The position numbers and the translations under genes are program-made. The notes below the pieces were generated by a model, which made no database searches, was not told the DNA's origin, and saw only the letters and a program-made list of their open reading frames with translations. 64,000 nucleotides of DNA from Eutreptiella sp. 'Long Island Sound 2002' (lineage: Eukaryota; Euglenozoa; Euglenophyceae; Eutreptiales; Eutreptiaceae). Shown here piece after piece: positions 16,190 to 35,240 of this stretch (within the stretch, counting starts at the first letter, position 1; each line of letters starts with the position of its first letter). The DNA lies in the NCBI GenBank assembly GCA_964036045.1, contig OZ038384.1, positions 39,348,844 to 39,412,843 of the forward strand, in the 5' to 3' direction.

Positions 16190-16207
16190 TAATGTATTAT
16201 TACGTTC
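16190..16207. repeat. LINE target-site duplication, 3' side
   Basis: TAATGTATTATTACGTTC, an exact 18-bp match to 31093-31110. It directly abuts the T19 tract, the expected place for a target duplication made by target-primed reverse transcription. Confidence 0.97.
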
Positions 16208-16226
16208 TTTTTTTTTTTTTTTTTTT
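16208..16226 (-). other. LINE poly(A) tail (A19)
   Basis: T19 on the plus strand, preceded in sense by the 3' UTR (16227-16369), which ends TTTTTGATC. No AATAAA signal is seen in the last 40 bp. Confidence 0.95.
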
Positions 16227-16369
16227 GATCAAAAAGGCCAGTTCATAAGTGCCAGGGGCCACAGTGGACCAAGTTCGAAGTAAGATACAGATTTCGGCGA
16301 AGCCAGGGTATGCATACGGGCTGCAGCTTGTGACTGTGCCCCCATGGTTTCCCATTGAGGTTGGTGTAG

Positions 16370-19300
16370 TCATGTCAGTGGTACTTCCCACTCATTTGGG
16401 TCCCAGTGCGTTTTGTGGCGTTTCGGTAGCGGTTGTAACGGGACTTCCCACAAGGTGGGGTCCCAGTGCTCCCGCGGCCGCTTCCGTATCAGGTATATCG
16501 TCTGTCGGGCTGGTCGGGTTGTTTGCCAGTATTGTGTTGTCTTGTGTTTGCAGGCGTCTTGGTAGTACTGTGCCATGGCAGTCAGGTGTGTCTGCTGCTG
16601 CCACATGTAGGTCGCTTGTTGATGGTGCAGGTCAAGTAGCTTGGCAGTGCCTCCGCTCAGCCTCCAGTATCGGTCGTTGACCATCAGTAGCAGTTTTGCG
16701 TCAGTGTACCACATCCTTGTGTCGTCCTTCGCTTGTTCGTACCATTGCCTACGTATTTGGTATAGGTGTGCATGTGTGTCGTGCAGTCGTTGTGTTTGTC
16801 TCTGTTGGTCGACTAGTTTTATGACAAGCCTGTGGTAGTCTGTTTTAGCCGTCAGTGCGTTGGTGTAGCCCATGTGTAGGGTGTGCAGGTGTTGTCTCGC
16901 CATCGCCTCCATGTGTGCTTTGTGGTATATGTCCCGTGCTTGCTGAGCGTGTTCATTTGCCAGCCTGTCTGTGGTCGTCTTGTACTGTTCCCACCGCTGT
17001 GTGTCAACGTTGAGGCGCTGACGTTTCTTTATGTGGTCGCCTGCCCCTGTGTTAGTGGCTCGCGCGACGAACCATGCCACTGCCTCACTATCGCCCGCGT
17101 TGCGTGCATCTTGTAACCATTGGCCGGGATCGATTGGGTCAGCCGTTGCGACCTCGACCTTACGTTTGCGTTTCGCGCCGCACCACGTGGGCGCCCCGAC
17201 TTGGTTCCGTAGGTTTTGGGGCGTTTCTCGCGGCGGAAGTGCTTGTGCCATGTATTTGGTGAGCCACAGGGGCGACGGTGGTTGTTGTGGTGTTGGGTCG
17301 GCGTACTTCCGTCTTAGTGTTTGGACGGACTGTATCATGCGAAACTGGAACAGGCCCACCTCCGTTCGAAGTTTGTGTCGTTCCGCAGTGGGTATGGCGT
17401 CGACGAGGGATAGTGGTATGAGCAGCCTGACACAGAGCCATAGTTCTTGGTTGTCGGCCGCTTGCAGCCATTGGTGCGTGTATGGGGCCCAATCAGTCCA
17501 GCTCTTGCGCCACAGGTCCCAGAAGTCGCTCCAGGCAGAACAGTAAGCCAGTTTTGACTGCACCGATGCTCCGTGTTGGTGGCCACACTGGGAGCAGAGG
17601 TGGGGTGTCCGTTCCCAGGGGGCGCCCATTCCCCACCATCGCACTTGCCCCCACAGCCAGGGTGTCCACGCGTTCCGTCTGTAGTGTTTCATGGGGAGCC
17701 AGCTCACCCAGTGTACGTCTGGTGTTTGTTTTTGTCTACGCACTTGCATGATCCATGCCTTGGCAGGCGTGGGCATGATCTGTCCTGTGATGACAATATC
17801 ATGGGGTTGTGGTTGTTGGGAATCCATGGGCAGGTTGTCGCCCATATTGGCGAGGACGTCAGAGTGGTTGTTCCCCTGTATGTCCTGGTAGTCTTTATAC
17901 GTGGTGGCTTGTTCTAGATTGCGGTGCCCTGGTGTCCATCGGATCGTCAGTCGTTTCGTGGTGGAGTTGAGGTACCCTATGTCGCGGTAGTCCTGGTCCT
18001 TGACCACACCTTTGCGTTTTATAGGTGTGGCCTTCACCACACTCTGGTTGTCTAGTATAATGTCGTCTCCTGGCTTGGCCAGCTCTGAAGCTAAGGCGCA
18101 AGCGATCGTTTCGGCCCGATAAACCTGTTGTGGCCCGTGCACCCGGAAGGCCGCACGGTATGTTCCGTTGCAGATGCCCCCTCCCGCTCGTCCGTGTCGT
18201 TTCGACCCGTCTGTGTACCACCGGGTGGTGGTGGGTTCTCCTGTGTAGTGTATGGTGATTCCGTGGAGTTTTTGCTGGTGGGGGAGTGCCTGACAAACCT
18301 CCTGGGTTTCCTCAGGGGTTGGCTCCTCTGGAGGGTTCATCCAGCTGTAGTCTAAGCGGTTGGTAGCTGGCCGTGTCTTCCCTGCATGCGTCTCCTGGTC
18401 CTCCTCTGAGCTCTCCGAGTCGTAGAGTCCCGCGGACAAGGGTCGGTGTTGTCGGGTTTGGGATATACGCTGACCCACTGTGCCCCCTAGGGCTCGGATG
18501 GCGTCTATGTATTTATATTGGGTTGCGGTGAGTTGTTGTGTAGGGCCGGTGCGCTGCAGTTCCTGTTGGCCAATTGTGACCCACCGGGTGATGTAGGAAC
18601 ACCACAGCTGGCGTAGGCCAAGTCCCCCGTGACTGAGGTTGGTAGTCAGCCGGTGTTTGTTCATTTGTTGTTCTACCCCGGGTGTATCCCTGATGAACTG
18701 CAGCGGGATGTCGTCCCAGTGCGCCATTCGTGTCCTATTTCCGAGGAACGGTCCCCTGTACGTCCAACGGGGGATAAGGACGGTGTTGATGATAGCCACC
18801 TTTTCGTAGGCGTTGAGCGGCAGGGTCCTGTATGCCGCTACGTCGTGGTGTAGCTGTGTAGTGACCATGTCCCATGCTGTGTCTTCTTGTGTGGGGTGGG
18901 CTAGCACATGCCCCAGGTAAGTCATTATAGGTGGCCGCACGGGGATGAGCTGATGCCGCCACGTGATGGGCGTTAGGTCGTAGTCCTTAGCCCAGTGGCA
19001 CACTTCAGTTTTGTCCTTGTTGACGCGTAACCCCATTGTGTGGGCCACGTCGTGGAGGGTATCCAGGGTGTGCAGCAATGCTTCCTTCGTGGGCGCACGC
19101 ATAGCTATGTCGTCAACGAACACGTACAGTCGGGCTCCCGGGCATCGTTCCATGGTTTCACGTAATAGTATGTCGTAGTACAGGAGAAATAGTGTTGGGG
19201 AGAGGGGGCACCCCTCCTTCATACCCCTGGTGGGTCGTATGGGTAGGTCCTTTCCGTGTAGGGTTAGTACGGCAGGTGTATGCTGGTATATTTCCCCCAA

Positions 19301-21193
19301 CATCCGTATGATGTTTTCTGGTGCCCCTGCCTCCTTGACGATCCCAGTCAGCATGGGTCGGGGGACTGAAGGAAAAGCTTTGGCCACATCAAGTAGGGCC
19401 ACGTACCCGTCCTCAACGTGCAGGTCGTTTAATAGTTTCGTGGCTAACGTTGTGGTGTTTCGGCCCTGTGTGGCGCCGTGTTGTATGTCCAATAGTCCCG
19501 GGGTCAAGGCTCCCGATATACGCGTCAGGAGGAGGCGTGTGAGTATACTATATATGGCCGTGGATACGTAGATTGGCCGGTAGTTTCGTGGGTCCTGGGG
19601 ATCCTTCTTTTTATAGATGAGCACTACCCTGGACTGCAGCCAAGCCACTGGGATGTGCTGTCCGTTCCAGACTGCAACGATTGCCTGGTATAGTTGCCGC
19701 TGCACGTGGTCCGGTAGGTGCCGGAGCAGGTGTGGGGGGACACCGTCAGGTCCGGCAGATTTGTTCTTTGGTGCCCAAAGGCACCGCAAGTACTCCTCGT
19801 ATGTGGGGGTCGTTGTGTTCCACGTGCGGTGCCGTACATGTTTCCGTATGAGTTGCCGGCACGCGTCTTCGTCGTATGTTGGGTCGCCCGCAAAGTGGTT
19901 GAGTACGTACTGTGTTCCTCCTATTGGGGGCTGCGGTGTGTCCTGGGCTATGAGTCCAGTGCGCCATCTCTTGACCATTTTATAAAAATAGCCCGATTTG
20001 TGCACTGCCGCTCGGCGCAGTTTGCCGATTTGTCTCCGTATGTGTTGCTCTTGTATTTCCCCGTACTCACGTAACCGTGTTTTGGGGTCCGTGGTTTCCG
20101 ACCAGCTTGCGGTGGTCGCTGTCTTTGCGCGCGTGGGTCGTCGTGGTCGCGCCGCGTGCGCTATAGCTGACAGGATCCGTCGTGCCGTGTGTAGGGGTGG
20201 GTCGTTGTTTGTTATGGGTAGTGTGGCTATGGTGTTAGTAAACCGTTGAAATTGTTTTGTATACCACTTCGCGACTGTGGGCTGTGGTTTTCTGCGTGGT
20301 GGGTCGGGGACCCCTATCCTCCATCGGACCCCAAGCAGGACCAAAGCATGATCCGATATGGGCATTTGTATGGTGTCATAGTAGGTCCAGGGTATATTCG
20401 GTATTTGTTGCCTTATCAAGATGGCGTCTAGTCGACGTGGGCGTCCATGCCTAGGGATGCGGGTATAGTATTGCCGGGGGTCCGGGGGTTGGCTGCTAGC
20501 GTGCAAAGGGTCCAGGAACACTCCGCTGGCCAGGTCTTCCTGCCACGGGCGTGTCGGGTTGGGTGACCAAATGTCATCGTTGTAGTCCCCCATAATGATG
20601 TCGTATGGTCTCAGAGACTGCAGATATAGGTCTACCTCTTGTTTGTCCTGTTGGTTGAATTTGGAGTACACACACGCAATGGTGCGGCGGGGGCTGTTTG
20701 GGAGCTGTATCCTGATGGCCCCTGCCAAACCGTTGGGTGAGTATAACGTTTCGAGTATGTGGGGGACCACAGCGTTGCGGACAATGAAAGCTATCCGTGG
20801 TTCGTTCCCAGGCGCAGCGTAGCACTTGTAGTCGTTGTTGAGTGCTGTTGAGGCTGCCTCTGGTTTAGGGAAACCTGGGTGAAACTCCTGGATGCCGCAT
20901 AGGTCGATACGGCACTGGCTGATTAGGTGGAGGGTATTGGCCCATCGTTGTAGGCTGACGGATCCCTGTGCTCCTTGTATGTTCCAGGAGGCCAGTTTCA
21001 TGTCGTGGTCCTTCGCGGTGGTTGCGTCGTCTAGACTGTCATACCGTCGATTGGTGTTGACCACCAGGTGTTGAGCATACTCCTCAATGTCAAGCAACGG
21101 TATGGGGGGTCCCCGCACATCCCGGCATCCCCGCCGGAGCTGATATATCCTACGGTGCCCGGGGTTGGGGTGCACATCTCCGCATTGGAGGAC
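16370..21193 (-). CDS. LINE ORF2: APE endonuclease, reverse transcriptase, RNase H, zinc finger
   Basis: Open from just after a TAG at 21194-21196 to a TGA at 16370-16372. Residue numbers count from the Val codon at 21175; the first internal ATG is residue 59 (MKLASWNIQG). Endonuclease: SWNIQG (63), GIQEF (94), IMGDYND (194), SDHALV (274). Reverse transcriptase: YKKKDPQDPRNYRPI (521), LLDVAKAFPSV (594), GMKEGCPLSPTLF (651) and the catalytic YVFVDDI (684). RNase H: WYTDGS (986), YRAETIA (1019), LDNQSV (1041), TPGHRN (1081) and HSDVLAN (1104), so D-E-D-D are all present. Zinc finger: CSQCGHQHG ending in C (1194-1212). The last 400 residues are of unknown function and end in a tandem HWDPxxWEVPL repeat. 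All catalytic motifs are intact, so this is the best preserved ORF of the element. Confidence 0.96.
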   Translation of the reverse strand, partial: VLQCGDVHPNPGHRRIYQLRRGCRDVRGPPIPLLDIEEYAQHLVVNTNRRYDSLDDATTAKDHDMKLASWNIQGAQGSVSLQRWANTLHLISQCRIDLCGIQEFHPGFPKPEAASTALNNDYKCYAAPGNEPRIAFIVRNAVVPHILETLYSPNGLAGAIRIQLPNSPRRTIACVYSKFNQQDKQEVDLYLQSLRPYDIIMGDYNDDIWSPNPTRPWQEDLASGVFLDPLHASSQPPDPRQYYTRIPRHGRPRRLDAILIRQQIPNIPWTYYDTIQMPISDHALVLLGVRWRIGVPDPPRRKPQPTVAKWYTKQFQRFTNTIATLPITNNDPPLHTARRILSAIAHAARPRRPTRAKTATTASWSETTDPKTRLREYGEIQEQHIRRQIGKLRRAAVHKSGYFYKMVKRWRTGLIAQDTPQPPIGGTQYVLNHFAGDPTYDEDACRQLIRKHVRHRTWNTTTPTYEEYLRCLWAPKNKSAGPDGVPPHLLRHLPDHVQRQLYQAIVAVWNGQHIPVAWLQSRVVLIYKKKDPQDPRNYRPIYVSTAIYSILTRLLLTRISGALTPGLLDIQHGATQGRNTTTLATKLLNDLHVEDGYVALLDVAKAFPSVPRPMLTGIVKEAGAPENIIRMLGEIYQHTPAVLTLHGKDLPIRPTRGMKEGCPLSPTLFLLYYDILLRETMERCPGARLYVFVDDIAMRAPTKEALLHTLDTLHDVAHTMGLRVNKDKTEVCHWAKDYDLTPITWRHQLIPVRPPIMTYLGHVLAHPTQEDTAWDMVTTQLHHDVAAYRTLPLNAYEKVAIINTVLIPRWTYRGPFLGNRTRMAHWDDIPLQFIRDTPGVEQQMNKHRLTTNLSHGGLGLRQLWCSYITRWVTIGQQELQRTGPTQQLTATQYKYIDAIRALGGTVGQRISQTRQHRPLSAGLYDSESSEEDQETHAGKTRPATNRLDYSWMNPPEEPTPEETQEVCQALPHQQKLHGITIHYTGEPTTTRWYTDGSKRHGRAGGGICNGTYRAAFRVHGPQQVYRAETIACALASELAKPGDDIILDNQSVVKATPIKRKGVVKDQDYRDIGYLNSTTKRLTIRWTPGHRNLEQATTYKDYQDIQGNNHSDVLANMGDNLPMDSQQPQPHDIVITGQIMPTPAKAWIMQVRRQKQTPDVHWVSWLPMKHYRRNAWTPWLWGQVRWWGMGAPWERTPHLCSQCGHQHGASVQSKLAYCSAWSDFWDLWRKSWTDWAPYTHQWLQAADNQELWLCVRLLIPLSLVDAIPTAERHKLRTEVGLFQFRMIQSVQTLRRKYADPTPQQPPSPLWLTKYMAQALPPRETPQNLRNQVGAPTWCGAKRKRKVEVATADPIDPGQWLQDARNAGDSEAVAWFVARATNTGAGDHIKKRQRLNVDTQRWEQYKTTTDRLANEHAQQARDIYHKAHMEAMARQHLHTLHMGYTNALTAKTDYHRLVIKLVDQQRQTQRLHDTHAHLYQIRRQWYEQAKDDTRMWYTDAKLLLMVNDRYWRLSGGTAKLLDLHHQQATYMWQQQTHLTAMAQYYQDACKHKTTQYWQTTRPARQTIYLIRKRPREHWDPTLWEVPLQPLPKRHKTHWDPNEWEVPLT
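21155..21184 (-). other. 2A-like motif 5 (degenerate, NPGH)
   Basis: The sense frame reads CGDVHPNPGH in frame with the RT ORF, 10 nt downstream of an in-frame TAG. Canonical 2A is D(V/I)ExNPG followed by P; here E is H and the last P is H. Known 2A biochemistry needs the final Pro, so skipping is probably lost or much reduced. Non-LTR elements such as trypanosome L1Tc carry a 2A at the same place, ahead of the endonuclease. Confidence 0.7.
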
Positions 21194-21196
21194 CTA

Positions 21197-21508
21197 GTTG
21201 GTGTTATACCGCGTGTTATATGGGCTGGTTACCGTGGTGATCGTGACAGGTGCATGGTAGCGGCATGGCGCTGCCGTGATTGGGGCGGTCGGGGTGTGGA
21301 AGAAACAGACGACATAGAGGAGAAGTAGGCCTGGCTGCCATATACGGCAACTATGGGGGTTGGGGCCCCGTGCGTAACCGTGCCGGTGCCGTAACGGCGG
21401 GGTATATCGTTTGCGGACTCTCCGGTTCACGGGGAGTAGATATACCGGCCCCTCAGTATGCATGGGGGCCAGGAGTAGGAGGAGGGCCATAATGGCGATG
21501 CAGGGCAT
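21197..21508 (-). CDS. Short hydrophobic ORF ahead of the RT frame
   Basis: 104 codons from ATG at 21508 to TAG at 21194-21196, in the same frame as the RT ORF. Two hydrophobic stretches: IAIMALLLLLAP near the N-terminus and GLLLLYVVCFF near residue 70, with basic residues between (RRVRKRY). It could be a signal or membrane peptide; if the TAG were read through it would be an N-terminal extension of the RT protein leading into the 2A-like motif. It starts 15 nt after a TGA (21523-21525) closing a lysine-rich frame, a spacing compatible with reinitiation. Real expression is uncertain. Confidence 0.45.
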
Positions 21509-21755
21509 GAGGAACAGGCACCTCACTTTTTCCCTTTGCCCTGCGGGTTTTTTGGCGGCCCCTTTCCTTTCCCCTTGTGTCTGTTGTCCACGGTGAAGGC
21601 AGCCGTACTGTCTGCTTGTTGTGTGGATTGCGGCGATGCAGGTGCTGCCTTCTTCTTTTTTGGTGGTGGCGTTGTTTTTGTGGGCGTTTTCTGTGGTGTC
21701 TTGTTGTGGGCCTTGGTTTTCTGTGCTGGGTGTGACTGCCGTGCGTGTGTTGTGG

Positions 21756-24143
21756 TTAATTTTGCCGGGTTGTCTGGTTGCTGGACGGGGTTTCATCCGT
21801 GTCCATGGTGGCCATATTTGGGTGGGCGTCTGATGGGGTGTCGTCGTTGGTGGCATGGCCGAGTTCGTTCAGGATGGCCTCGTCCCAGTCTGCCACGTTG
21901 ATGGGTTCCGGCTCTGCGAACAGCTGCTTTTCCCTGTTGATTTCCTTGATGACGCGTTCAGTCATCATGTGTGAGCCCATATGCTTCCCTGCCTTCATTC
22001 GTCTTCTGAAGGCCGCGTCGTCGCCCGTTTCCTGCGGCATTTTGTGCGCGAGCATCTGGTCGATGCGCTCTGCCGCCTGTGTGTCCGTGTTGTCATCTCC
22101 TAGCGTGATGTGGACGTATTCACCGGGTGCCACTCCGATGTATTGTCCGGCACTGAGGGCCACTGCCGTGGCGTGCTGGTATTGGAGGGAGGCGTAGGTG
22201 CAGCCCGCGTCGCTCCACATGTTGGGTTCCGGCTTCCAGCTGGTCCAGCATCCAAAGAATGATGCCACGACTTTCGCCGTGTTGTCTCCTGCGCCGTGTG
22301 TCCACCCTACGAACACCGTCGTGGTGTCGTGCCTAGTCAGTTTTGGCGGTCGCTTGATGTCCGTAGAGCGGCTCGTGGACTGTGTCCAGTTGTTGCGGTT
22401 GAGGATGACGTTGGTCATCACGTGGACCAGCTCGTAGCTTTTCATGCCCTTTAGTAGTTGGGCAATCAAGCGTCGGTCTGCGTCTGGGTGGAATTGTACC
22501 AGTAGACGGTATGAGTCCACTGGTCGGAACCCCTTGAGGAAGGATGCAATGCTCCTTCCTAGCTCGAGCTGTTCCCTGTCCAGGTCGTCCAGTATCTCCT
22601 GTACGGACGTTATTCTGTCTTCTTTGTGTTCCGTGCATTGTTGTCTCAGTATATAGAGGCTCTCATAGTCCGTTTCGGTGAGCCAGTAGGGCCCATGGTT
22701 GCCGGCGTTTTCCTCCTCTTGTTTTATGGTCTGCAGTGCTTGTGTCAAGCGAGGCAGCAATTGCATGGGCAGGTGTAGTCTCCAGGCGTGCGACCCACTT
22801 TGCCCCGCGGTTTGTTCGGATGCGCACTTCCACCGAAAAGTGTTGTGGGGGTCTTTGCTTGCTATGGTGGATGCGACGTCAGACTGGTGGCCGTTGATCC
22901 GTTTCATAAATGCGTCTCGCGTCCTAATGCCCGTTTCTGGTGGGCACTCCACTACGATTGTAGTCTTGGCCGGTTCCGGTTGTAGTGTGTCTGTGCGGTC
23001 TTCCAGTCCCACTTGTATGGGTGTGCCCTTCGTGAGTGCGTATATTTTGTGCGTGGGCTCGTGTCCCATCTTTATGGTGTTGTCCAGGTGGAGGACCATG
23101 ATGGGTTTGGGTTGTAGGTGGTCGACCATAGTTTCGTGTTCCGGGGACCACTTGCGCACGGGGAATTTGTCGAATTGGTATACGCCCCTTACATAGCGGG
23201 CCAGTTTGCGCAGGGGGGCGCGGTGGAGGCAGTCCATGCGGTAGGTTTGTAGTGCTGTAATGTCTTGGCGGTCCGCCTCGTAAGCCAGGATCAGTTCCTT
23301 GGCCCCCGGGTCGCCGAGTGCCCGTAGGACTTGGTCAACCCGTCCGTCCTCGCTTCCGCCCCATTCCGTTTGTATGGCGGCGCGCTGCATGCGTCGTTCA
23401 TGGTTGCGGCGGTTCCCGGTTGCCTGTGGCAGTAGTAAGTATGTCTTGTTCCGGATGTCTGGGTTCCCTTGATGGTCGGCTTCCGTGTGTACTATGTATT
23501 GGTGTGCTTCGGCCATCTTGGATACCGTGTGTATACCGTCAGAGTCTGCCTCATGCCTCACCGTCATGACGTCGCGCAGTTCGTGTTGCGCAAACAGAGG
23601 GAGTTGGTAGGTGTTCCTGTCATACCATACCCCTTCCTGTGTTTGCCTCCTGATGTGCTCTGTGGTCACTGCACGGTTTAGGTGCTTTGTTAAGTAAGTT
23701 TTTAGTCTGGTTTGTGCGTCATACACAACTGATGCTTTCAATGTGTCTCGCTCTGCTGTAGTCATTGGTTGTTGTGACGCGCCTGTGTTGAGCTTTACGA
23801 GTTCTTCTATGAGCTGGTATTCTGTAGGTGTGTGTATGGGTAGTTTGTCCAGTGGGTTGTTGCCGTCTTCGTGGAATGTGTATGCCTGTGTATCCTCTTG
23901 GGGTGGAGGGGGGACGTAACTTAGCCCTTCGGTGTGTTGGTCAGGTGGTGTGCTAGGTTACCCATTCTGGGGGGGTTCCCGCTCAGTGGTATCCTCTGGT
24001 GGGGGGTTTGAGGTTGACTCCAGGATGTCCGGGTTTTCCTTTTCGTCCCCTTGGTCTTGCACACCAGTGTGCAGTCCGGACGTGTGTCTTTCTTAGTTTT
24101 CTGCCAGGGTGCGCACCATGCCATGGGGCGGGGCGTTGCTATC
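21756..24143 (-). CDS. Large ORF after 2A-4, function unknown
   Basis: 669 codons from ATG at 23765 to TAA at 21756-21758. The same frame continues upstream to 2A motif 4, crossing TAA codons at 23958-23960 and 24093-24095. No known domain is recognised. The protein is hydrophilic and mixed, with patches such as RMDCLHRAPLRKLARYV and VFVGWTHGAGDNTAKVVASFF. Just past the TAA another frame gives a strikingly basic tail (KTPTKTTPPPKKKKAAPAS, then GKGKGPPKNPQGKGKK) ending in TGA at 21523-21525. A frameshift near GGCAAAATTAA would add it as a nucleic-acid-binding C-terminus. By position it is the likely ORF1 / nucleocapsid-type product. The upstream stops may be decay or may define a true start at 23765. 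Confidence 0.7.
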
Positions 24144-24173
24144 CGGGCCTGGGTTTGGTTCCACATCACCATC
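24144..24173 (-). other. 2A-like motif 4
   Basis: QDGDVEPNPGP preceded by TQWVPDAT: a canonical D-V-E-x-N-P-G-P. The upstream context WVPDATQDGD closely resembles motif 3 (WVHDPTQDGD), so these units look like duplicates. Confidence 0.92.
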
Positions 24174-24636
24174 CTGCGTGGCATCCGGCACCCATTGGGT
24201 GTGTTGTGGGTAGACCACGTCTGGGGTAACGGATGTGATCCTGTCATGGCGCACATCCGATGGGTGGTCGGGTGGCACCCAATCGGTGGTGTCATACTCC
24301 AGGAGCAGGTCGTGTTGCAAGGGTTGGACCAGAAAGAGCCAGTATCGTATGGATACGGCCATGTGGTAGCCCTCCCTCGTGCCCGTGAGGACATGCAGTT
24401 TGTGTCTTGCGATGTGGTAGTATGGGAGGTCAGTCCTGAGGTGTACCTCCCACAGTTGGCCTGTTGTGCTAGGAAGCCTCCTCCACACGTTGTATGCCAA
24501 ATGCGCTGGCGGGTTGGGAGTTGCGCAGTGATCCGTGTATGTGAGGAGTCCGTTGTTGTAGATTTGTATGTGGAAATACGCATATGTTGGGTCATCCGGG
24601 GGTGGGGGGGGGTATCTTTGGTTGCAGAGTGCCGCG

Positions 24637-24747
24637 GCACAGTGGGCATCTTAGCTGTCGTGGGTCGTTGGCGCAGTCCTGGCACAGCCTGTGCCTGGGG
24701 TCGCAGCTCAGGTGTGTATCCGCGGGGCTGTCCAAGCATACGGGGCA
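24637..24747 (-). other. C3HC4 RING finger domain
   Basis: Cysteine/histidine spacing C-x2-C-x10-C-x3-H-x2-C-x2-C-x8-C-x2-C, with CPVC at the start and CPLCR at the end. All eight metal ligands are present and there is no stop inside. Canonical RING spacing makes chance unlikely. Confidence 0.92.
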
Positions 24748-24921
24748 GTCCTCCAGGGCCCGTCCACCGTCATCCGTGTTCCACGAGTGTTTGTGCACGT
24801 CGTCGTTGGGCTGGCGGGGTGGTGGTGCCGCCAGCAAGAGCGGTGGCAGAGCGTTGTGCACCTCAGTCCCCATGTCCCCCGGCGGTGTGGTCTGGGCTGT
24901 GCGCTCCACTGCGGGTGTGGT

Positions 24922-24951
24922 TGGTCCGGGGTTGGGCTCTGTGTCTCCGTC
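24922..24951 (-). other. 2A-like motif 3
   Basis: QDGDTEPNPGP. The V/I position of the 2A consensus is T, and all other core residues fit. In the same frame as motif 2, 459 nt away. Confidence 0.85.
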
Positions 24952-25380
24952 TTGAGTCGGGTCGTGGACCCAGCTCGTTGGTCTCGGGTAGGGGCGATTG
25001 CGTAGGCGTTGTGTTCGGCGGATCTTCCTGCGTGGTGAGTCACCCATGACTTGGTCAGTGGTGTCTTCATATGTCCGGTTCATGCGTAGGTTTCCTTGGT
25101 TCCCGGGGGGGTGTTGCTCGTCCCAGTGGGTCGTGCTATGGTGCCGTTTGGGTAGTGGTTGGTGGGTAGGTTGCCCGTCCGCCTTTCGTTTGTGGTGGTT
25201 ACATACCAGTGTTGACGATTGATGCTCCTGGTTCGCCATGGGTACGTGGTCTGCGCGCCTCCGTTTTAGTCCGGGGGGGGTGTTGTCCGCGGTGCGTTTG
25301 CGTAGCATCCTAGGTGTTTGGTACATATGTGGTGTGTCTTGGTTGTATCGCGTGCGCTTCGCTGAGGGTGTTGATGGGCT
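24952..25380 (-). CDS. Arg/Lys-rich segment released between 2A-2 and 2A-3
   Basis: About 143 residues between two 2A motifs in one uninterrupted frame. It is strongly basic, with several clusters resembling nuclear localisation or nucleic-acid-binding motifs: AKRTRYN, MLRKRTAD, GLKRRRADH, HHKRKADGQ, LPKRHHS, PRRKIRRTQRLRNR. A CNHH pair is present but no complete zinc finger. The 2A on each side predicts a discrete protein of about 16 kDa starting with Pro. A role as RNA chaperone or nuclear import factor is inferred from composition only. Confidence 0.7.
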
Positions 25381-25410
25381 GGGACCGGGGTTAGGTTCGA
25401 CATCCCCGTC
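25381..25410 (-). other. 2A-like motif 2
   Basis: SDGDVEPNPGP preceded by GWLRDVT; all consensus residues present. Confidence 0.93.
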
Positions 25411-25656
25411 GCTTGTGACGTCGCGTAACCAGCCGTCCGGGGTGTCCTCCACGGTCGGTCGGGGGCCCGTCTCGTGTGGTACTGGCGTGTGGTAGGTTTG
25501 CAAGGTGGTGGCCGGTATGGCCTCTTGCCAGGATTCTTGTCGTGGGTATAAGGGGTCTGGGGACATCACGTTGTAGAGTCGCCGTGGTACCAAGTCTGGG
25601 GTATCCGGTTGGTGTATGGCAAAATACTTGCATGTGGTGCAGCTGAAGTACACAAA

Positions 25657-26394
25657 GAGGGAGATATACGCACCGCGCGCACCGCGTGGTGCACCGCGCG
25701 CGCACCGCGCTTAGGTTTCTACCAACCCTTTCCTGCATTTTTCACATTTTTTCAGGTTGGCAAGGACGCGGTGGCCTAAGGGGTAAGCACACAACAACGG
25801 AGGCCTCCACTCCATCCTCCTCACCAATGGTGGTTGTGGCCGCCCACACCCCCTGCCAAGGGAGGGCCGTAGGAAGAGGAAGAAGAGGATGTAGAACTCT
25901 CCGGTACGGCCGCTCGACCGAAGAGCCTAGTGCCCCACACGGTGCCCAAGCCTGTGGGCCCGTTTCGAACGTTTCGCGTTTCGCTGTGCTCAATGCACTC
26001 GTTTCGCGTTTCGGAACCAGATGGAAAATAAATCTTTCAGATCCGCACAAGGGGAAGAACAAGGTGACTAACAGTGGACACACAGACTCGCTACGAAAAA
26101 CGCGCGTACTTCAGCGGAAAACGTTTTATGCCTCTGATTTTTCATTTGTTCTCTATAGAGGGAGGGGCGAGGCACCCGTGGCAATTGTCCGCCATCGCGA
26201 CAGCCATCGCAACCTGGCTTGGCGCCCTATCCCGCAGCCACGGCACACGGGCTCACCACAAGGGAGGGGCAAATAGTGGTGAGGTGCAGAAAACAGCACA
26301 GGGGGAAAGAAAAGGTTGTACGCGCACGTGGAAAACCAATGCACCGCGCGCGCACCGCGTGGTGCACCGCGCGCACCGCGCTTATATCTCCCTC
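25657..26394. mobile_element. 738-bp inverted-repeat (MITE-like) insertion in the LINE
   Basis: The terminal inverted repeats are a perfect 12 bp: GAGGGAGATATA at 25657-25668 and TATATCTCCCTC at 26383-26394. A 3-bp duplication AAA flanks it (25654-25656 and 26395-26397). Both ends continue in GC-rich palindromic text (GCACCGCGCGCACCGCG, CACCGCGTGGTG). No transposase is encoded. The size and 3-bp duplication resemble PIF/Harbinger- or CACTA-type non-autonomous elements. It splits a zinc-ribbon ORF exactly. Confidence 0.88.
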
Positions 26395-26808
26395 AAAGTC
26401 GGCCATGTTGCATCGGGGGCAAACTACATCGATGGCTGTGGTCATGTTTAATCCTACCGGTGAGTGGTGTTTTTGTGTTTTTACAGTCAACTCGGAAGTT
26501 TCCAAGTGGGCGGGTCGTGGTGTGCCTGGGTCATGTACCCCTTGCACCATAGGTGCCTCTGGTGATGGCACCTCCAATGTGCCATGTGTGGTAGACGGTT
26601 CTGCACATGGAGCGGGTGTGTTGTGTCCTAAGGGAGGGGTGGATGCGCGCCGATTTTTTTGCAGTGCCTCCGTGAGTGCCTGTGTCGCGTATTTGTATAG
26701 TTTAGCGGGGTAGTGGGGGTTGGAGGCCGTTTCGATCTCGCTAGCTAGCCGGGTGACCATCTCTCTGTGCTGGGGGGGGATGTCGTTCCCTGTGGTCTGC
26801 GCATCTTC

Positions 26809-26838
26809 AGGCCCCGGGTTCTTTTCGATATCACCGTC
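26809..26838 (-). other. 2A-like motif 1
   Basis: VDGDIEKNPGP preceded by IGLLRDRT; all consensus residues present (D-I-E-x-N-P-G-P). Confidence 0.92.
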
Positions 26839-26952
26839 GACCGTGCGGTCCCGCAACAACCCAATGAGGGCGGGGGGGTGTCGTTGATTGTTGGGGGGTA
26901 CCTGCCTAGATGGTGGGTCGCAAGGCAGTTCCTCTCCCATGAGGGGGGGGGG

Positions 26953-28880
26953 TAGCCCGAGGGGTAGGGGGGTTCCTCACGATACTGTGGCAATAGCACG
27001 AAGGGATCTGATCCAGGAAATGCGTGTATTCTGGTCATTGTCGCAGGTGCCTGTCCAGTCCGATGCCCGTCGGTCGGGACCTGCGCGGCGTCCCCGCGTA
27101 CTGATGGCCGGTTTGGGGCCATATATGACATTCCTGTCTGGTTGTCGTGTACTGCCTGTCGCTGGTCAGCAGACTAGGCGTCACCGGGGGCGTCGAGCGC
27201 GCCCACACCGGTGTGTAGAGCGGGAGAGTAGGCGGTGGCCAAGGGCCCAGCCGGGTAGGTGCCAGTAGCGCCTGCCATCCCCACGCATTGTCGGCAGGCG
27301 GGCACGTTCACACGACCCGTCGCCTTCGCAGCGCGTTGCCTGTCTGTCCGGTCCCGCGCTGTTGATGGCCGGGTTGGGGCCATATATGACATTCCTGTCT
27401 GGCTGTCCTGTGCTGTCCGTTGCCGGTCGGCACGCCGAGCATCACCGGGGGCAAAGAAAGCGCCCACGCCAGTGTACCCGGATAAATAAACTGCGGCCTG
27501 GTAGGCAGTGGCCAAGGTCCCGGCCGAGTGGGTGCCAGCGGCACCAGTCATTAGCGTGCATGTCTGAGGAGCAAAATCCTTACAGCCGACTTGCCACCGT
27601 GCGGTCACCGTGCGGTTGACTCGGTCCGTTCCAGGTTGTCCGTTCCCGCTGTTCACTGTGGAGAATGGCGCAAGGCAGGTGTTGGGAAGGTAGCCACAGT
27701 CTCCCGCCGTTCCCCTCATGCATATGTATGCACATACTAGCACATTAGGTGACGCGGTATCTCGTTGATCAGGGGGTGGAATGGTGGGGATGTTGGGGAT
27801 GACCGTCCCCAGTTCCCCCTTGTGGGTCCTGGGTCGGCGCCTCCTTCCTCGCGGCTGCCGGGGGGGTGCCTGCTGTTCTTGCTGTGCGGCCACCACGTAC
27901 CAGCCTCCAGTGAAGGGGAAAATCCCAGCCCGTCCCCAGCCGGATGGTTCCGGTAACTGTTCTGGTGCCTGCTCTGCGTGTGCATTGTGCCACGGTGCCC
28001 TTTCCCCGTGGATCTGAGGGGGTCCGGGCTGGTGCACGGGGTGCTGGTCTGGTGCGTCCGGTGTGTAGTACACTTGCTGGTGCCGTTGTGAGTGCCCCGT
28101 TACCGGCGCCGGCTCGGGAATCGGATAGACAACACTGTCCGTTGGTCGTTGGCGGGGGGCATGCGGGTCCGCCAGTGGTCGTGTGCGATCCCTTGAGAGC
28201 CACATGTCCAGATATCCCGTTGCCGGTTCGGCATCTGTGCGTCGCTGCATCGGTGGCTCGGTTCGCAGGATCTCGAGCGCAGCTGCATTCTGCTCGCTGA
28301 ACCTGGCCCAGGTTCCTGGACTGTCATCTGGCAGCATGTGCTGTCCATGGCGGTCGACGACTGCCCGATACTCCACTTGTGGTTCCTACTGTGTCTGTGG
28401 TACATACAGTGGTTCACTGTGGTACACCGGCTGCGCTGCCGTGTGTTCCATGCGTGTGGCTGCCCGGTATTGCACCTGAGGTTCGTGCTGTGTCTGTGGT
28501 ACATGCAGTGGTTCACTGTGGTACACCGGCTGTGCCGCCGTGTGTTCCATGCGTGTGGCCGCCTGCTGTGGGAGTGGCTGTCGGTTTACGTCCCTGTGTC
28601 CGTGTTGGAGGGCAGGGACCGCACATGGCACCTCCGGGCTGTGAGGATTGCGGTAGAAACACAGCGGTTCAGCCACAGGCGTTGGGGGGCAGAGGGGTGG
28701 GTGTTGAGGCTGCTGTCCGGGTTCTTGCAGGGAGACTTGTCGTTCCCCTTGGCGCGTGTCGATGCTCACGCAGTAGCGTCGTCATGCTTGTGGTTCCGCC
28801 TCGCCTTGTGACGGTCCTGCCTGGGTGCGGGCTTGGTCACTGTGTCTGTCAGCGCTGCGCTGTGGCACTGGGGCCTCAGG
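26953..28880 (-). pseudogene. Repetitive LINE ORF region between ORF A and the 2A cassette
   Basis: One frame stays coding-like for 1.9 kb but contains TGA (28782-28784), TAG (28386-28388) and TAG (27174-27176). Both TAGs lie within protein repeats that continue past them. The 33-residue unit (RMEHTAAQPVYHSEP, PQTQ) repeats at 28390-28590. The GDA-xxAD, QTGMSYMAP, ATAY and TGVGA module repeats at 27040-27570. Gln/Pro-rich parts and an Arg-rich patch (RQPRGRRRRPRTHKG, near 27830) are present. The frame ends at the C10 run at 26943-26952. No known domain. The stops may be decay or recoding; the repeats show that the frame was once open. Confidence 0.65.
27040..27570. repeat. Two imperfect ~240-bp in-frame repeats in the LINE
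   Basis: GATGGCCGG.TTGGGGCCATATATGACATTCCTGTCTGG and the flanking text occur at about 27101 and 27365, each followed by a CACCGGGGGC block and a GGTGCCAG block. The repeats translate to homologous peptides in one frame on the minus strand. Confidence 0.8.
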
Positions 28881-28882
28881 CG

Positions 28883-31036
28883 TCACGGTTTGCTGGGTTG
28901 CTGGATCGACCGGCACATTCCTGCTACAGAGTCCGCAAGGGACGTCATGGCCCGCAGGGCCTGGGTGAGTTCGCCCTTGGAGCTGCGCTTCCGGGACTTT
29001 TTCCGTCGGCTGTGGCTGTCGCTGTCGCTGTCGCGGGTGCTGTCACTGTCTGTGTCTCTCCGTGACCGTCTGCCTCCTCCCTTCAGACCCACCAGTCGCA
29101 ACGTCAGGTGGATGGGTCCGGTTGTGGTCGTGGTCGGGGTAGGGTCGTGGTCTCCGAGCGGCTGTCCTTGGTAGAACAGCCGCTGGTGTTGCGGTGGGGG
29201 TAGGTGTGGCGTGAGGTGATGGAGGGCATGTTTGATGCCCTTGACTGACCCGGTTGCCGGAAGGCAAACCGGGGGTCCGGCGCCGCTCACGATCACCGAC
29301 CTACAGCGCCACGCAGGGTGGGGTTGGGAGGGGGGGATGGATCGATGTGAGAACGCCGTGTTGCGGCAATTCCTAGTTCGCGAGCAGTGCGGTGTATGCG
29401 ATGGCAACGGTGTTACATGCAACACAGGGTGTATGCCCGGTCGTCGGTGCAGTTCCTGCGCAGAAAACTGCGCAGCGGTTACGGTGTGGTTTGGGTAGTG
29501 ACACGGACGGGGAGCAGGGCTCCGCACCGTCGTTATGGTTGGCATTGTTGGCGGGGAGCGTCGCTCCGCTCCGCCGTTGGCCATTCCGTAGTGTGTCGTG
29601 ATGTTTTGGTACGTTGTCTGGTTGGTGGTGTTGGCTGGCGGGGAGCAGGGCTCCACTCCGCCGTCTCCGTTGTGTAGCAGGAGCAGGATGATGTATGTCA
29701 TCAATCCTATGTAGCACAGAGGTCGGGGCCTCCATGAGGTCGTTTTGTTGAGTCGTACAGTGGCATGCCAAGGGCGGGGAGCGAGGCTCCGCACCGCCGT
29801 TGTGTTGTTCTCCGTCCTGTCGGTTGTGTCCGGCGGTTGGTTGTCGGTGTCTGGGCGGGGAGCTGAGCTCCGCACCGCCGGTTGGATGTTTGGGTGAGAG
29901 GCATACCTGGCACGCGGCGGTGCGGCATCCGGCAGTCTCAGGCCATCCAAACGGCGAGCGTCTTCGTTACCGACGTCCATGGTTGACGGGCCGACGTGGT
30001 ACGCGGTCGTACCAGTGACTCCTTCGACAGAGGTTCGTCCATCCGATCCCACGGCGGCACGTACGTCATTTGCTGCCATCAATGTTGCTGCCGGCAATGT
30101 TCTCCAGGGTGTTGTCGCAGAGAATTTGTCGTCAGGAGCGTAGGTACACGTCCTGTCATAGCCGCAGTGGTTGGCCCGGGAATTCCATACGTTCGCTGGT
30201 ACTCGTCCTGAGATCTGATGATCTGCAAGGAATTCCACAGCGCAGGTACTCGTCCGGCCACAGTTATCGGGGATGACCTCCATGGTCTGCACGTTGTGGT
30301 CATCAGTGTTCTCCTGGGTTTTGATCTCAGAGACATCGTTGCCAGCGCTGTCGTCCAAGGTGTTGATCGCAGGGCCGTTGTTGTCGTCCGCGTTCTCCAC
30401 GGTGTTGATCTCAGAGAAGTTGTTGCCAGAAGCTCTCCCCAGGGTGGTAATCTCCGAGACGTTGTAGCCAGAAGCCCTCTCCAGGGTGTTAGCTTCAGAG
30501 GAATTGTTGCCAGAAGCGCTCCCCATGGTGGTGGTCTCAGAGATGTTGTTGCCAGAGGCGCTCCCCAGGGTCTTGTTCTCAGAGACGTTGCAGCCAGAAG
30601 CACTTGCTAGGGTGTTGATCTCAAAGACGTTGCTGCCAGAACCGCAAGAGGGAGGACTGGCTAGACCCGACCCGTACCTTCCGTAGTAGTGGGCCAAACT
30701 CGAGTTATGGTTGTCCTCGGTGGGGATGGTCTTGCTGTCGTACATGTGAGCGTTGGCGGTTGCGACGGAGAGGGAGTCGTTCACGTCAGCTTTACCCAAG
30801 GCGGGGTCATACTTCACTTTGTAGGAATCGTACTCGGAGACGGCCGTCACATTGTTCGGATCAGCCATAAGTGCCTCCTTGATTGTCGCCGGGGGTGATC
30901 TTTGGTCGGTGTTGTCGTCGCTGTTGGTCGTGTCGACGATTGCGGGTGCTGCTAAGAACGCCTGCCGTAACAAGGCTGGGAGCCAGGCAAAGCGTCTTAC
31001 ATCACGCTGCCCCATGCTGGGCTTTCCGTGGTCCAT
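28883..31036 (-). CDS. LINE ORF A with 14-residue repeats, ubiquitin-like domain and RS tail
   Basis: 717 codons from ATG at 31036 (MDHGKPSMGQ) to TGA at 28883-28885. An upstream GTG at 31063 lies in the 5' repeat and is less likely. N-terminal half: seven or eight copies of a 14-residue repeat (like ASGNNVSEITTLGS), rich in N-x-S/T. Middle: Pro/Thr-rich, with one hydrophobic stretch (YIGLMTYIILLLL). C-terminal: a 76-residue ubiquitin-like domain (29075-29302) ending LRLVGLKGG, then an Arg-Ser/Asp tail (RRSRRDTDSDS, SRRKKSRKRSSKG) and a short helix. The GG is followed by more residues, as in ubiquitin precursors, so processing is possible but unproven. The ORF is uninterrupted. Confidence 0.85.
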   Translation of the reverse strand: MDHGKPSMGQRDVRRFAWLPALLRQAFLAAPAIVDTTNSDDNTDQRSPPATIKEALMADPNNVTAVSEYDSYKVKYDPALGKADVNDSLSVATANAHMYDSKTIPTEDNHNSSLAHYYGRYGSGLASPPSCGSGSNVFEINTLASASGCNVSENKTLGSASGNNISETTTMGSASGNNSSEANTLERASGYNVSEITTLGRASGNNFSEINTVENADDNNGPAINTLDDSAGNDVSEIKTQENTDDHNVQTMEVIPDNCGRTSTCAVEFLADHQISGRVPANVWNSRANHCGYDRTCTYAPDDKFSATTPWRTLPAATLMAANDVRAAVGSDGRTSVEGVTGTTAYHVGPSTMDVGNEDARRLDGLRLPDAAPPRARYASHPNIQPAVRSSAPRPDTDNQPPDTTDRTENNTTAVRSLAPRPWHATVRLNKTTSWRPRPLCYIGLMTYIILLLLHNGDGGVEPCSPPANTTNQTTYQNITTHYGMANGGAERRSPPTMPTITTVRSPAPRPCHYPNHTVTAAQFSAQELHRRPGIHPVLHVTPLPSHTPHCSRTRNCRNTAFSHRSIPPSQPHPAWRCRSVIVSGAGPPVCLPATGSVKGIKHALHHLTPHLPPPQHQRLFYQGQPLGDHDPTPTTTTTGPIHLTLRLVGLKGGGRRSRRDTDSDSTRDSDSDSHSRRKKSRKRSSKGELTQALRAMTSLADSVAGMCRSIQQPSKP
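29075..29302 (-). other. Ubiquitin-like domain in LINE ORF A
   Basis: It starts RSVIVSG (strand 1) and has GSVKGIKHALHHLT in the place of helix 1. Then comes LPPPQHQRLFYQGQPLGD, matching the ubiquitin segment IPPDQQRLIFAGKQLED, and last IHLTLRLVGLKGG against LHLVLRLRGG. Length is 76 residues, equal to ubiquitin, with the terminal Gly-Gly in place. The Lys equivalent to K48 is Gln. Confidence 0.85.
30300..30650. repeat. 42-bp in-frame repeat in ORF A
   Basis: Seven to eight units of about 42 bp, such as CCCCAGGGTGGTAATCTC, AGAGACGTTGTAGCCAGAAG, encode the 14-residue repeat. Multiples of three are kept throughout, consistent with selection on the protein. Confidence 0.85.
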
Positions 31037-31047
31037 TCGTTGGTACC

Positions 31048-31079
31048 GAAAAAAAATAGACACGAAAAAAAATAGACAC
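31048..31079. repeat. Two tandem 16-bp repeats in the LINE 5' UTR
   Basis: GAAAAAAAATAGACAC occurs twice without spacing (31048-31063, 31064-31079), only 13 bp from the element's 5' end. In sense it is GTGTCTATTTTTTTTC. Tandem 5' repeats are common in LINE promoters; promoter activity is inferred. Confidence 0.7.
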
Positions 31080-31092
31080 TCATAAAGTGATG

Positions 31093-31110
31093 TAATGTAT
31101 TATTACGTTC
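31093..31110. repeat. LINE target-site duplication, 5' side
   Basis: TAATGTATTATTACGTTC, identical over 18 bp to 16190-16207. Confidence 0.97.
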
Positions 31111-33361: not shown

Positions 33362-33829
33362 TCTAAATAGAGAATAAATCTTTCTACAGTATGTTAGGCA
33401 AACAAAACGGTTGAAACTACCGTTTGTAGGGCCAACACTATTTTTTTTTCGTACTTTTTTTTAAATTGGTATCTCGTTTTTCGTTGTCTAGGTCGTAGCA
33501 TAAACTAAAACTGGGGATGGAAAAGTTTATATATACCTCTTCTTCTGCAAAATTGCACAACATGGCCCCTCATACTTCTGTGATATATGTCCTAAGCTAT
33601 TTCCAGCTGTGCCCGACATGCAAAAAAGATCAAATTAACACAAATCAATCGACTTGCACTTGCATGCCCCTTCGGCAAGCTGTAAACAGTTCGCAGCACA
33701 CCGGGCACACAGCCCAAAATCCTAAAAACCCCCACCAATTAGGGGAAGACAACATCCTAGGTGGTTTCGTTGAACATACTAGGTATGAAACAGCAAAAAC
33801 AAAGTCATATCGGAAAAGTACAAATACAC
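33362..33829. other. No supported feature
   Basis: AT-richer stretch between coding remnants and the 72-bp satellite, with a TATATATACC near 33530. No gene or repeat recognised. Confidence 0.4.
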
Positions 33830-35240
33830 ATGGCTAATGGTGATATGTAACATCATGTACAAGGTATGGGATATCATTGCAACCTTTGAAACCATGTCTC
33901 CATGGCTCGCGGTGACATGTAACATGATGTACAAGGTATGGGATGTCACCGTAGCCCCTAAAACCTTGTCTCCATGGGCACCGGTGATATGCAACATGGT
34001 GTGCAAGGTGTAGCATATCACCGCAGCCGGTAAAACCACTTCTCCATGGCTAGTCATGGCATTTTTCGATTTTTCGCCTAGTTGCACCCATTTCCACTTT
34101 GTTACACATCACCGCTGGGAAGTGGTTTCAGCGGCTGCGGTGATATGATACACCTTGCACACCATATTGCATATCACCACTCCCCATGAAGACAAGGTTT
34201 TAGGGGCTACGGTGATATCCCATACCTTGTACATGATGTTACATATCACCAGTGCCCATGGAGACAAGGTTGCAGGGGCTGCGGTGATATCCCATACCTC
34301 GTAGACCATGTTACATATCCCCCCTAGCCATGGAGGTGGTTTTACCGGCTGCGGTGATATGCTGCACCTTGCACACCATGTTGCATATCACCGGTGCCCA
34401 TGGAGACAAGGTTTTAGGGGCTACGGTGACATCCCATACCTTGTACATGATGTTACATATCACTGCAGGCCATGGAGACATGGTTTCATGGGGAGTGGTG
34501 ATATCCTACACCTTGTAGACCATGTTACACATCAGCGCTGGCAACGGAGAGACAGTTTCATCAGCTACAGTGATATCTTGAACCTTACAGACCATGTCGC
34601 ATTACCGCGGGCCATGGAGACATGGGATCCTACACCTTGTACACCACGTTACATCTCATAGTTGCCCATGGATCGAGACAAGGTTTCAAGGGTTGCATTG
34701 ATATGCTACACCTTGCACACCATGTTATATATCACCACTGCCCATGAAGACAAGCTTCGAAGGGCTGCGGTGATATCCCATTCTTTGTACATGATGCTGC
34801 ATATCACCGATGCCCACGGAAACATGCTTTCAGGGGATGCAATGATATCCCATACCTTGTCAACCATGTTACTATCACTGCGGGCCATTGAGACATGGTT
34901 TCAGGGGCTGCCGTGGTATCCTACACCTGGCAGACCGTGTCGCATATCACCGCTAGCCATGAAGACATGATTTCAAGGACTGCAGTGATATGACCATACC
35001 TTGTACATAATGTTATATATCACCGTCGGCCATGGAGACATGGTTTCAGGGGCTAGGGTGATGTCATACACCTCGTACCACCTGGCAGACCGTGTCGCAT
35101 ATCACCGCTAGCCATGAAGACATGATTTCAAGGACTGCAGTGATATGACCATACCTTGTACATAATGTTATATATCACCGTCGGCCATGGAGACATGGTT
35201 TCAGGGGCTAGGGTGATATCATACACCTCGTAGACTGTGT
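33830..35240. repeat. 72-bp satellite, block 1
   Basis: About 19 units around ATGTTACATATCACCGC, CCATGGAGACATGG, TTTCAGGGGCTGCGGTGATAT, CC(A/T)ACACCTTGTA. Each full unit has 10-bp inverted arms ATATCACCGC and GCGGTGATAT enclosing the CCATGGAGACATGG loop. The left third is in the opposite orientation to the rest, with the switch near 34.05-34.15 kb. The period is a multiple of three, so spurious ORFs with a 24-residue repeat appear. Confidence 0.92.
34926..35230. repeat. Recent ~155-bp duplication inside the satellite
   Basis: Two units from CCTGGCAGACCGTGTCGC to about TCAGGGGCTAGGGTGATG are repeated almost exactly at 34926 and 35081, a higher-order repeat much younger than the surrounding units. 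Confidence 0.8.

What the first reader, a model, noticed from the sequence alone, without database searches (positions are those of the whole stretch)
24637..29302. A retrotransposon that encodes both a ubiquitin-like domain and a RING finger
ORF A ends with a 76-residue domain aligning along the whole of ubiquitin (LPPPQHQRLFYQGQPL, LTLRLVGLKGG). Downstream, between two 2A motifs, lies a complete C3HC4 RING. Together they suggest a self-contained ubiquitin-like conjugation or mimicry module, perhaps to tag or protect element proteins or divert host turnover. The domains are seen; the joint function is inference.
Basis: partly seen in the sequence, partly recalled or inferred. Interest (0 to 1): 0.9.

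Follow-up and report, generated by a model that had tools for sequence, protein, structure and literature searches.

The report
Giant LINE with ubiquitin-like and RING
A very large jumping gene, possibly from a photosynthetic eukaryote, carries a conserved ubiquitin-like domain and a conserved RING finger in proteins apparently separated by 2A peptides, which hints that it manipulates its host's ubiquitin system, although no activity has been shown.

Summary
Window 16208-31092 (minus strand) is a full-length APE-type non-LTR retrotransposon (LINE): 14,885 bp, perfect 18-bp target-site duplication, poly(A) tail, EEP endonuclease and reverse transcriptase. Its N-terminal part holds a 76-residue domain that aligns with ubiquitin (profile score 29.8; best of 300 column shuffles 16.2). 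A C3HC4 RING lies between the third and fourth of four 2A motifs. This copy is broken by frame breaks and a 0.74-kb insert, but relatives are numerous. All RING ligands are present in 10 of 12 relatives that reach the RING. GG is kept in all 9 counted relatives that reach it, and in the window. In diverged copies both domains change more slowly than the stretches before them, which suggests selection. The "self-contained conjugation module" is not supported: no E1, E2 or protease was recognised, GG is internal, the tail reads LRLVGLKGG, and 2A should separate the domains. I favour an integral ubiquitin-like domain on an ORF1-type protein, plus a free RING E3 using host E2 and ubiquitin. No listing from ten literature searches reports this combination. 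New variant of a known kind.

The parts
16208..31092 (-). complete LINE insertion, 14,885 bp, 3' poly(A) at its low-coordinate end
   Evidence: bounded by two copies of an 18-bp direct repeat; A-run directly before the low-coordinate copy
31093..31110 (-). target-site duplication, 5' copy
   Evidence: perfect 18-bp match to 16190-16207
16190..16207 (-). target-site duplication, 3' copy
   Evidence: perfect 18-bp match to 31093-31110
28886..31099 (-). reading frame A (stop to stop; it begins just outside the element), variable N-terminal region followed by Ub-like domain, RS-like tail and helix-like segment
   Evidence: open frame of 738 codons; relatives
29075..29302 (-). ubiquitin-like domain ending LRLVGLKGG
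28901..29074 (-). RS/SR-like basic tail and conserved segment KGELTQALRAMTSLADSVAG
   Evidence: 75-92% identical in relatives P0038, P0039, P0048
27177..28385 (-). reading frame B, continuous with frame A in relatives P0029 and P0039 (by eye)
   Evidence: no Pfam or NCBIfam match
26809..26859 (-). 2A-1, LLRDRTVDGDIEKNPGP
   Evidence: motif scan; NPGP kept in P0002, P0003, P0004, P0011, KPGP in P0012
25657..26394 (.). later insertion with terminal inverted repeat GAGGGAGATATA and TTT duplication, interrupting a CxxC...CxxC zinc-binding-like segment
   Evidence: the relatives that cover the site, other than P0006, read through without it
25381..25434 (-). 2A-2, GWLRDVTSDGDVEPNPGP
   Evidence: NPGP altered in P0008, P0010 and P0021
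24922..24975 (-). 2A-3, SWVHDPTQDGDTEPNPGP (T in place of V/I)
   Evidence: 83-100% identical in the 11 relatives covered, one of which (P0020) reads KPGP
24637..24747 (-). C3HC4 RING, followed by conserved R
24144..24197 (-). 2A-4, QWVPDATQDGDVEPNPGP, at the end of a conserved segment that follows the RING in relatives
   Evidence: in frame with the RING in P0026; NPNP in P0028
21759..23957 (-). reading frame C, 733 codons, unknown function
   Evidence: no Pfam or NCBIfam match; only a chance-level PDB match, E=0.97
21155..21193 (-). 2A-like motif with NPGH, before the endonuclease; NPGP in distant relative P0064
16373..21193 (-). EEP (APE) endonuclease, reverse transcriptase, RNase H-like region and C-terminal extension
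   Evidence: PF03372 E=1.9e-10, PF00078 E=5.1e-25, no RNase H match in the window protein itself; P0064, aligned over the region, has RNase_H PF00075 E=8.9e-5 (below its curated cut-off)

Best explanation
The element is an APE-type LINE that makes a long polyprotein, cut during translation by 2A ribosome skipping into five or six products. Product 1 (ORF1-like) carries an integral ubiquitin-like domain, a basic RS-like tail and a helix. A later product, between 2A-3 and 2A-4, is a free RING protein. Most likely the RING acts as an E3 with host E2 and host ubiquitin, on a host factor or on the element's own particle. The ubiquitin-like domain most likely stays attached and docks product 1 onto host ubiquitin-binding proteins, like UBL domains of the Rad23/Dsk2 type, rather than being conjugated. 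Shown: element anatomy, both domains by sequence profile, and their conservation. Inferred: a single polyprotein, 2A activity, E3 activity, docking and targets.
For: LINE anatomy with perfect TSD and poly(A) and EEP+RT. Ub-like profile match. RING with all eight ligands and the following R in 10 of the 12 relatives that reach it, of 28 found. In diverged copies the RING is 71-84% identical where the linker before it is 29-47% (P0010, P0013, P0014, P0020, P0027), and the Ub-like domain is 72% or 87% where the 160 residues before it are 46% or 52% (P0046, P0031). Four 2A motifs, none in 300 shuffles. Same genome: 10 of 27 contig lengths on the RING side also appear among the 29 on the Ub side. 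One RT relative (P0063) is a cluster of 236 member sequences, which suggests recent expansion. GG is internal and K48 is lost, which favours an attached domain over a modifier.
Against: No structure model. Both domains score below Pfam gathering thresholds in the window, and no member of the scanned sets has a better E-value than about 2e-4. The window copy is disrupted. No relative found spans the junction between frame B and 2A-1, or between frame C and the endonuclease, so a single polyprotein is inferred there. The RS-like tail after the Ub-like domain is about as conserved as the domain itself (P0031 88 against 87%, P0048 75 against 75%, P0051 65 against 65%), so the contrast holds only against the stretch before it; in near-identical copies there is little contrast, and in P0019 the RING region is out of frame, 18% against 42%. 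Some 2A motifs are altered in relatives (P0008, P0010, P0012, P0020, P0021, P0028). The hydrophobic residue of CPxC is K in P0020. GG kept in all 10 counted sequences that reach it, with the residue before it free to vary, fits cleavage or conjugation better than pure docking. Divergence of the two sides on the 10 shared contigs is only weakly correlated (Spearman 0.55, p=0.10).
Confidence: 0.5

Rival explanations
1. Ubiquitin-fusion processing: a host deubiquitinase cuts after GG, releasing the RS-like basic protein from the upstream part, as a further processing step beside 2A.
For: GG followed by R or K in 9 of 9 counted relatives that reach it and in the window, while the residue before GG varies (G, E, R); R72-equivalent in 11 of 11 and R42-equivalent in 11 of 12. 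A basic segment follows GG, as in ribosomal-protein ubiquitin fusions (recalled).
Against: Tail LRLVGLKGG is three residues longer than LRLRGG and lacks R74; the domain has about 600 residues of frame before it in this copy; identity to ubiquitin is only 25%.
Confidence: 0.2
2. Structural reuse: the ubiquitin-like fold and the RING serve RNA binding, oligomerisation or particle assembly, without any link to ubiquitin transfer.
For: The Ub-like domain sits beside a basic RS-like tail and a helix-like segment that are about equally conserved, as expected of a nucleic-acid-binding ORF1 protein; CR1-type ORF1 proteins carry PHD zinc fingers (recalled).
Against: The RING keeps a hydrophobic residue in CPxC in 9 of 10 relatives with a complete RING (K in P0020) and the CPLCR end with its arginine in 10 of 10, typical of E2-binding RINGs (motif meaning recalled; conservation).
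Confidence: 0.22
3. Self-contained ubiquitin-like conjugation module: the element's own modifier is attached by its own RING.
For: Both domains in one family, GG conserved.
Against: No E1, E2 or protease recognised in the frames scanned; GG is internal; divergent tail; 2A motifs separate the two parts.
Confidence: 0.05
4. Passenger host fragments or chance resemblance, without function.
For: The family does pick up host sequence: relative P0036 carries a chlorophyll-binding fragment in its N-terminal part (PF00504 E=1.3e-8). Both Pfam matches are below gathering.
Against: Shuffle controls and conservation of both domains against the stretches before them.
Confidence: 0.03

Closest known systems
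APE-type non-LTR retrotransposons with 2A (L1Tc of Trypanosoma cruzi; elements of Odon et al. 2013)
   Same: EEP endonuclease plus RT, poly(A), target-site duplication, 2A motif D(V/I)ExNPGP; a 2A-like motif directly before the endonuclease, NPGP in relative P0064.
   Different: Four 2A motifs separating several extra proteins, 14.9 kb length, ubiquitin-like domain and RING. 2A in such elements seen in passages of PMC4981915 and PMC11512398; Odon et al. itself was not held and how many 2A motifs its elements carry was not seen.
LINEs and other retrotransposons with captured enzymes (SymbioLINE-Dnmt; TRAS with SF1 helicase; orchid Gypsy with AlkB)
   Same: An extra, acquired domain next to RT; purifying selection is reported for the DNMT case.
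   Different: Here ubiquitin-like and RING instead of methyltransferase, helicase or demethylase (passages of PMC5890265, PMC6338049, PMC9289625).
LINE protein P0072 with a USP (UCH) deubiquitinase and MLLE domain
   Same: A non-LTR RT polyprotein that carries a ubiquitin-pathway domain (PF00443 E=5.9e-22, RVT_1 E=1.2e-34).
   Different: RT only about 25% identical; a ubiquitin remover, not a ubiquitin-like domain or E3; 2A motifs not examined.
Ubiquitin / NEDD8 / integral UBL domains
   Same: Aligned over 65 columns at 25% identity; R42, L43, G47, L50, H68, L69, L71, R72 equivalents largely kept.
   Different: K48 is Q or R, V70 is T or A, tail LRLVGLKGG, internal GG.

Membership tests
APE-type non-LTR retrotransposon (LINE) | EEP/APE endonuclease and RT in one reading frame | tested here: met
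   PF03372 1.9e-10, PF00078 5.1e-25
APE-type non-LTR retrotransposon (LINE) | target-primed insertion marks: target-site duplication and 3' tail, no LTR | tested here: met
   18-bp perfect duplication and A-run; absence of LTRs not tested separately
APE-type non-LTR retrotransposon (LINE) | ORF1 nucleic-acid-binding protein | tested here: inconclusive
   no Pfam match in frames A, B, C other than ubiquitin; basic RS-like tail seen by eye
APE-type non-LTR retrotransposon (LINE) | placement in a named clade by RT tree | not tested
2A / StopGo peptides | D(V/I)ExNPGP motif | tested here: met
   four motifs on the coding strand, three canonical and one with T in place of V/I; 0 in 300 shuffles; a fifth reads NPGH; altered in some relatives
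2A / StopGo peptides | ribosome-skipping activity | not testable with these tools
   needs a translation assay
Ubiquitin family (PF00240) | profile match at the curated threshold | tested here: not met
   21.2 bits against 25.4; 9 of 12 members match at E<=1, best 3e-4; hhalign and shuffle controls positive
Ubiquitin family (PF00240) | beta-grasp fold | not testable with these tools
   structure prediction switched off
Conjugatable ubiquitin-like modifier | C-terminal GG, exposed or freed by a protease, after a ubiquitin-like tail | tested here: inconclusive
   GG present in 10 of 10 counted sequences that reach it, but internal and after VGLK in the window; no protease recognised in the frames scanned
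RING finger (C3HC4) | eight zinc ligands in RING spacing | tested here: met
   window and 10 of 12 relatives that reach the RING
RING finger (C3HC4) | profile match at the curated threshold | tested here: not met
   21.9 bits against 27; 9 of 10 chosen members match PF13920 at E<=1
RING E3 ligase | E2 binding and ubiquitin transfer | not testable with these tools
   bench assay needed; CPLCR arginine kept in all 10 relatives with a complete RING

The most novel reading that the evidence does not exclude
A LINE lineage has taken a ubiquitin-like domain and a RING E3 into a 2A-processed polyprotein and uses them to defeat or recruit host ubiquitin-dependent control of retrotransposition: a retrotransposon with its own ubiquitin-pathway effectors on the writing side, with GG cleavage or even conjugation of its own ubiquitin-like protein.
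Probability: 0.2. Interest if true: 0.88.

Novelty: new variant of a known kind. Interest (0 to 1): 0.7.

Why it matters
LINEs are usually described as making one or two proteins (recalled). This family apparently makes five or six, separated by four or five 2A motifs, two of them with ubiquitin-pathway domains that seem to be kept by selection. If the RING is an active E3, a retrotransposon would carry its own counter-defence or turnover machinery, as some viruses do (recalled). The two small domains can be expressed and tested directly. A distantly related LINE protein with a deubiquitinase (P0072) suggests that ubiquitin may be a recurrent target of LINEs.

Tried and rejected
Chance resemblance: disfavoured by shuffle controls. 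Domains present only in this copy: rejected by relatives. An E2 or protease in ORF C or after the RING: not seen in Pfam, NCBIfam or PDB sequence searches; a PDB match of the post-RING segment to a ubiquitin-like protein (1ttn, E=0.74) and one of ORF C (1y89, E=0.97) were set aside as chance level; the frame at 21868-21197 was not scanned. Viral or prokaryotic relatives: none confirmed in three scans of viral contigs and one of genome contigs, which may leave out the window's own genome. Host identity: not established; a chlorophyll-binding fragment in relative P0036 only suggests a photosynthetic eukaryote. Same-contig evidence is suggestive only, since contig length stood in for contig identity. 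In one search only 11 of 33 Ub-side and 12 of 28 RING-side relatives reach the domain by the patterns used; the others end before it, start after it or (by eye) run in another frame. P0053 and P0056, not caught by that pattern, also show GG by eye. One search tested 9 relatives, one search used 11 relatives plus the window, and searches scanned 12 and 10 chosen sequences, not all relatives. The library lacks most subscription papers, so absence from print is not proven.
Full report
Observation. The ubiquitin-like stretch is 29302-29075 and the RING 24747-24637, both on the minus strand. Pfam finds ubiquitin (PF00240, E=2.5e-4 on the isolated domain) and RING (PF13920, E=1.5e-4), both under the curated thresholds. 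Because of that I ran controls. A profile of 12 family sequences aligns with a small ubiquitin/UBL profile over 65 columns at 25% identity with hhalign score 29.8; 300 column-shuffled versions reach at most 16.2 and the reversed one 8.4. No shuffle of the window domain among 20,000 (11,430 of them reported with a score) reached the score of the window or of the 9 relatives tested against a Ub/RUB profile. The C3HC4 pattern occurs once in the window's six-frame stretches of 60 or more residues, against 0.01 on average (maximum 1) in 300 shuffles.

The element. The 18-bp sequence at 31110-31093 recurs exactly at 16207-16190, the second copy directly after an A-run. The 14,885 bp between them form one LINE insertion. 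Its 3' part encodes an EEP endonuclease and an RT. The closest relative beyond the near-identical ones, P0064, is 30% identical over the same region and has a sub-threshold RNase H match. In order, the minus strand shows: frame A with a variable N-terminal region, the ubiquitin-like domain, an RS-like tail and a helix-like segment; frame B; 2A-1; a CxxC...CxxC segment; 2A-2; a K/R-rich segment; 2A-3; the RING and a segment conserved in relatives; 2A-4; frame C; hydrophobic stretches; a 2A-like motif ending NPGH; endonuclease and RT (segment labels without a named motif are by eye). The window copy is damaged by frame breaks, and by a later insertion at 25657-26394 with inverted-repeat ends and a TTT duplication.

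Relatives. Protein searches found 28 relatives of the RING frame, 33 of the ubiquitin-like frame and 16 of the endonuclease/RT region, two of these near-identical. Several join what is broken in the window: P0029 and P0039 run from the ubiquitin-like domain into frame B; P0002 and P0004 run from 2A-1 to the RING; P0001, P0010, P0013 and P0027 run from the RING into the following segment; P0026 runs on to 2A-4; P0062 runs from the hydrophobic stretches into the endonuclease. No relative found joins frame B to 2A-1 or frame C to the endonuclease part, so one continuous polyprotein is an inference there. Of 28 RING-side relatives 12 reach the RING; 10 keep all eight ligands and the CPLCR end, one (P0003) loses the frame inside it and one (P0028) starts inside it. 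Of 33 ubiquitin-side relatives 11 contain the core by the pattern used and 9 of these reach the tail; all 9, and the window, have GG followed by R or K, while the residue before GG is G, E or R. The 2A motifs are mostly kept, but NPGP is altered in P0008, P0010 and P0021 (2A-2), P0012 (2A-1), P0020 (2A-3) and P0028 (2A-4).

Selection. In diverged copies the RING stays 71-84% identical to the window where the linker before it has fallen to 29-47% (P0010, P0013, P0014, P0020, P0027). The ubiquitin-like domain is 72% and 87% identical where the 160 residues before it are 46% and 52% (P0046, P0031). Limits: in near-identical copies there is little contrast; in P0019 the RING is out of frame (18% against 42%); and the RS-like tail after the ubiquitin-like domain is about as conserved as the domain. 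This is protein-level evidence; dN/dS could not be computed because no DNA of relatives was available (genome search did not complete; seven tries).

Linkage of the two domains. Ten of 27 contig lengths on the RING side recur among 29 on the ubiquitin side, as expected if the parts belong to the same elements, but divergence on the two sides is only weakly correlated (Spearman 0.55, p=0.10).

Mechanism. Four 2A motifs are present, three canonical and one with T in place of V/I. 2A motifs work in other non-LTR retrotransposons (passages of PMC4981915; PMC11512398). If they work here, the ubiquitin-like protein and the RING protein are released separately. The RING has features of an E2-binding RING (meaning of CPxC and of the following arginine recalled), so it most likely borrows host E2 and ubiquitin. 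The ubiquitin-like domain keeps R42- and R72-equivalents, but K48 is Q or R in 12 of 12, and in the window the tail reads LRLVGLKGG with GG inside the protein. I therefore favour a permanent docking domain over a modifier. GG conservation keeps processing by a host deubiquitinase as the main rival. No E1, E2 or protease was recognised in the frames scanned, so nothing shows the element to be self-contained.

Known kinds. It is an APE-type LINE with 2A, a known kind. Captured enzymes in retrotransposons are known for methyltransferases, helicase and demethylase (passages of PMC5890265, PMC6338049, PMC9289625). A ubiquitin-like domain with a RING in a LINE appeared in no listing from ten searches (three of them capped lists), in a library that lacks most subscription papers. 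A distant LINE protein from the same protein search, P0072, carries a USP deubiquitinase (PF00443 E=5.9e-22), so ubiquitin-pathway capture may be recurrent. Structure prediction was off; the fold is therefore argued from sequence only.

Noticed in passing
relative P0036, N-terminal part: A member of the same element family carries a duplicated chlorophyll a/b-binding fragment (PF00504 E=1.3e-8, two stretches) in its variable N-terminal region; P0045 and P0054 look like decayed versions by eye, without a Pfam match. The family seems to capture host exons.
   Followed up: partly
P0072: LINE-type protein of 2021 aa with USP deubiquitinase, MLLE and RT domains.
   Followed up: partly
P0065: LINE-type protein of 2487 aa with RT, RNase H and a sub-threshold PCIF1 match (27.2 bits against 31.1).
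   Followed up: no
window 25657-26394: TIR element (GAGGGAGATATA ends, TTT duplication, GC-rich subterminal repeats) inserted in the LINE.
   Followed up: partly
window 45319-46116 (minus): RT fragment 36% identical to this element's RT, a second family.
   Followed up: partly
window 29490-29870: Repeated short hairpin-like units (CGGGGAGC...GCTCC) by eye within frame A, possibly an RNA signal rather than coding constraint.
   Followed up: no
window 21155-21193: The 2A-like motif before the endonuclease reads NPGH here and in P0062, but NPGP in the distant relative P0064.
   Followed up: partly
window about 7140-9357, 33829-35278 and 48658-51862, 56331-58670: Large tandem arrays with spacings of 10, 72 and 85 bases; the first and last keep long open frames.
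   Followed up: no
window 59168-61492 (plus): Long open frame that looks like a Mutator-type transposase by eye; not tested.
   Followed up: no
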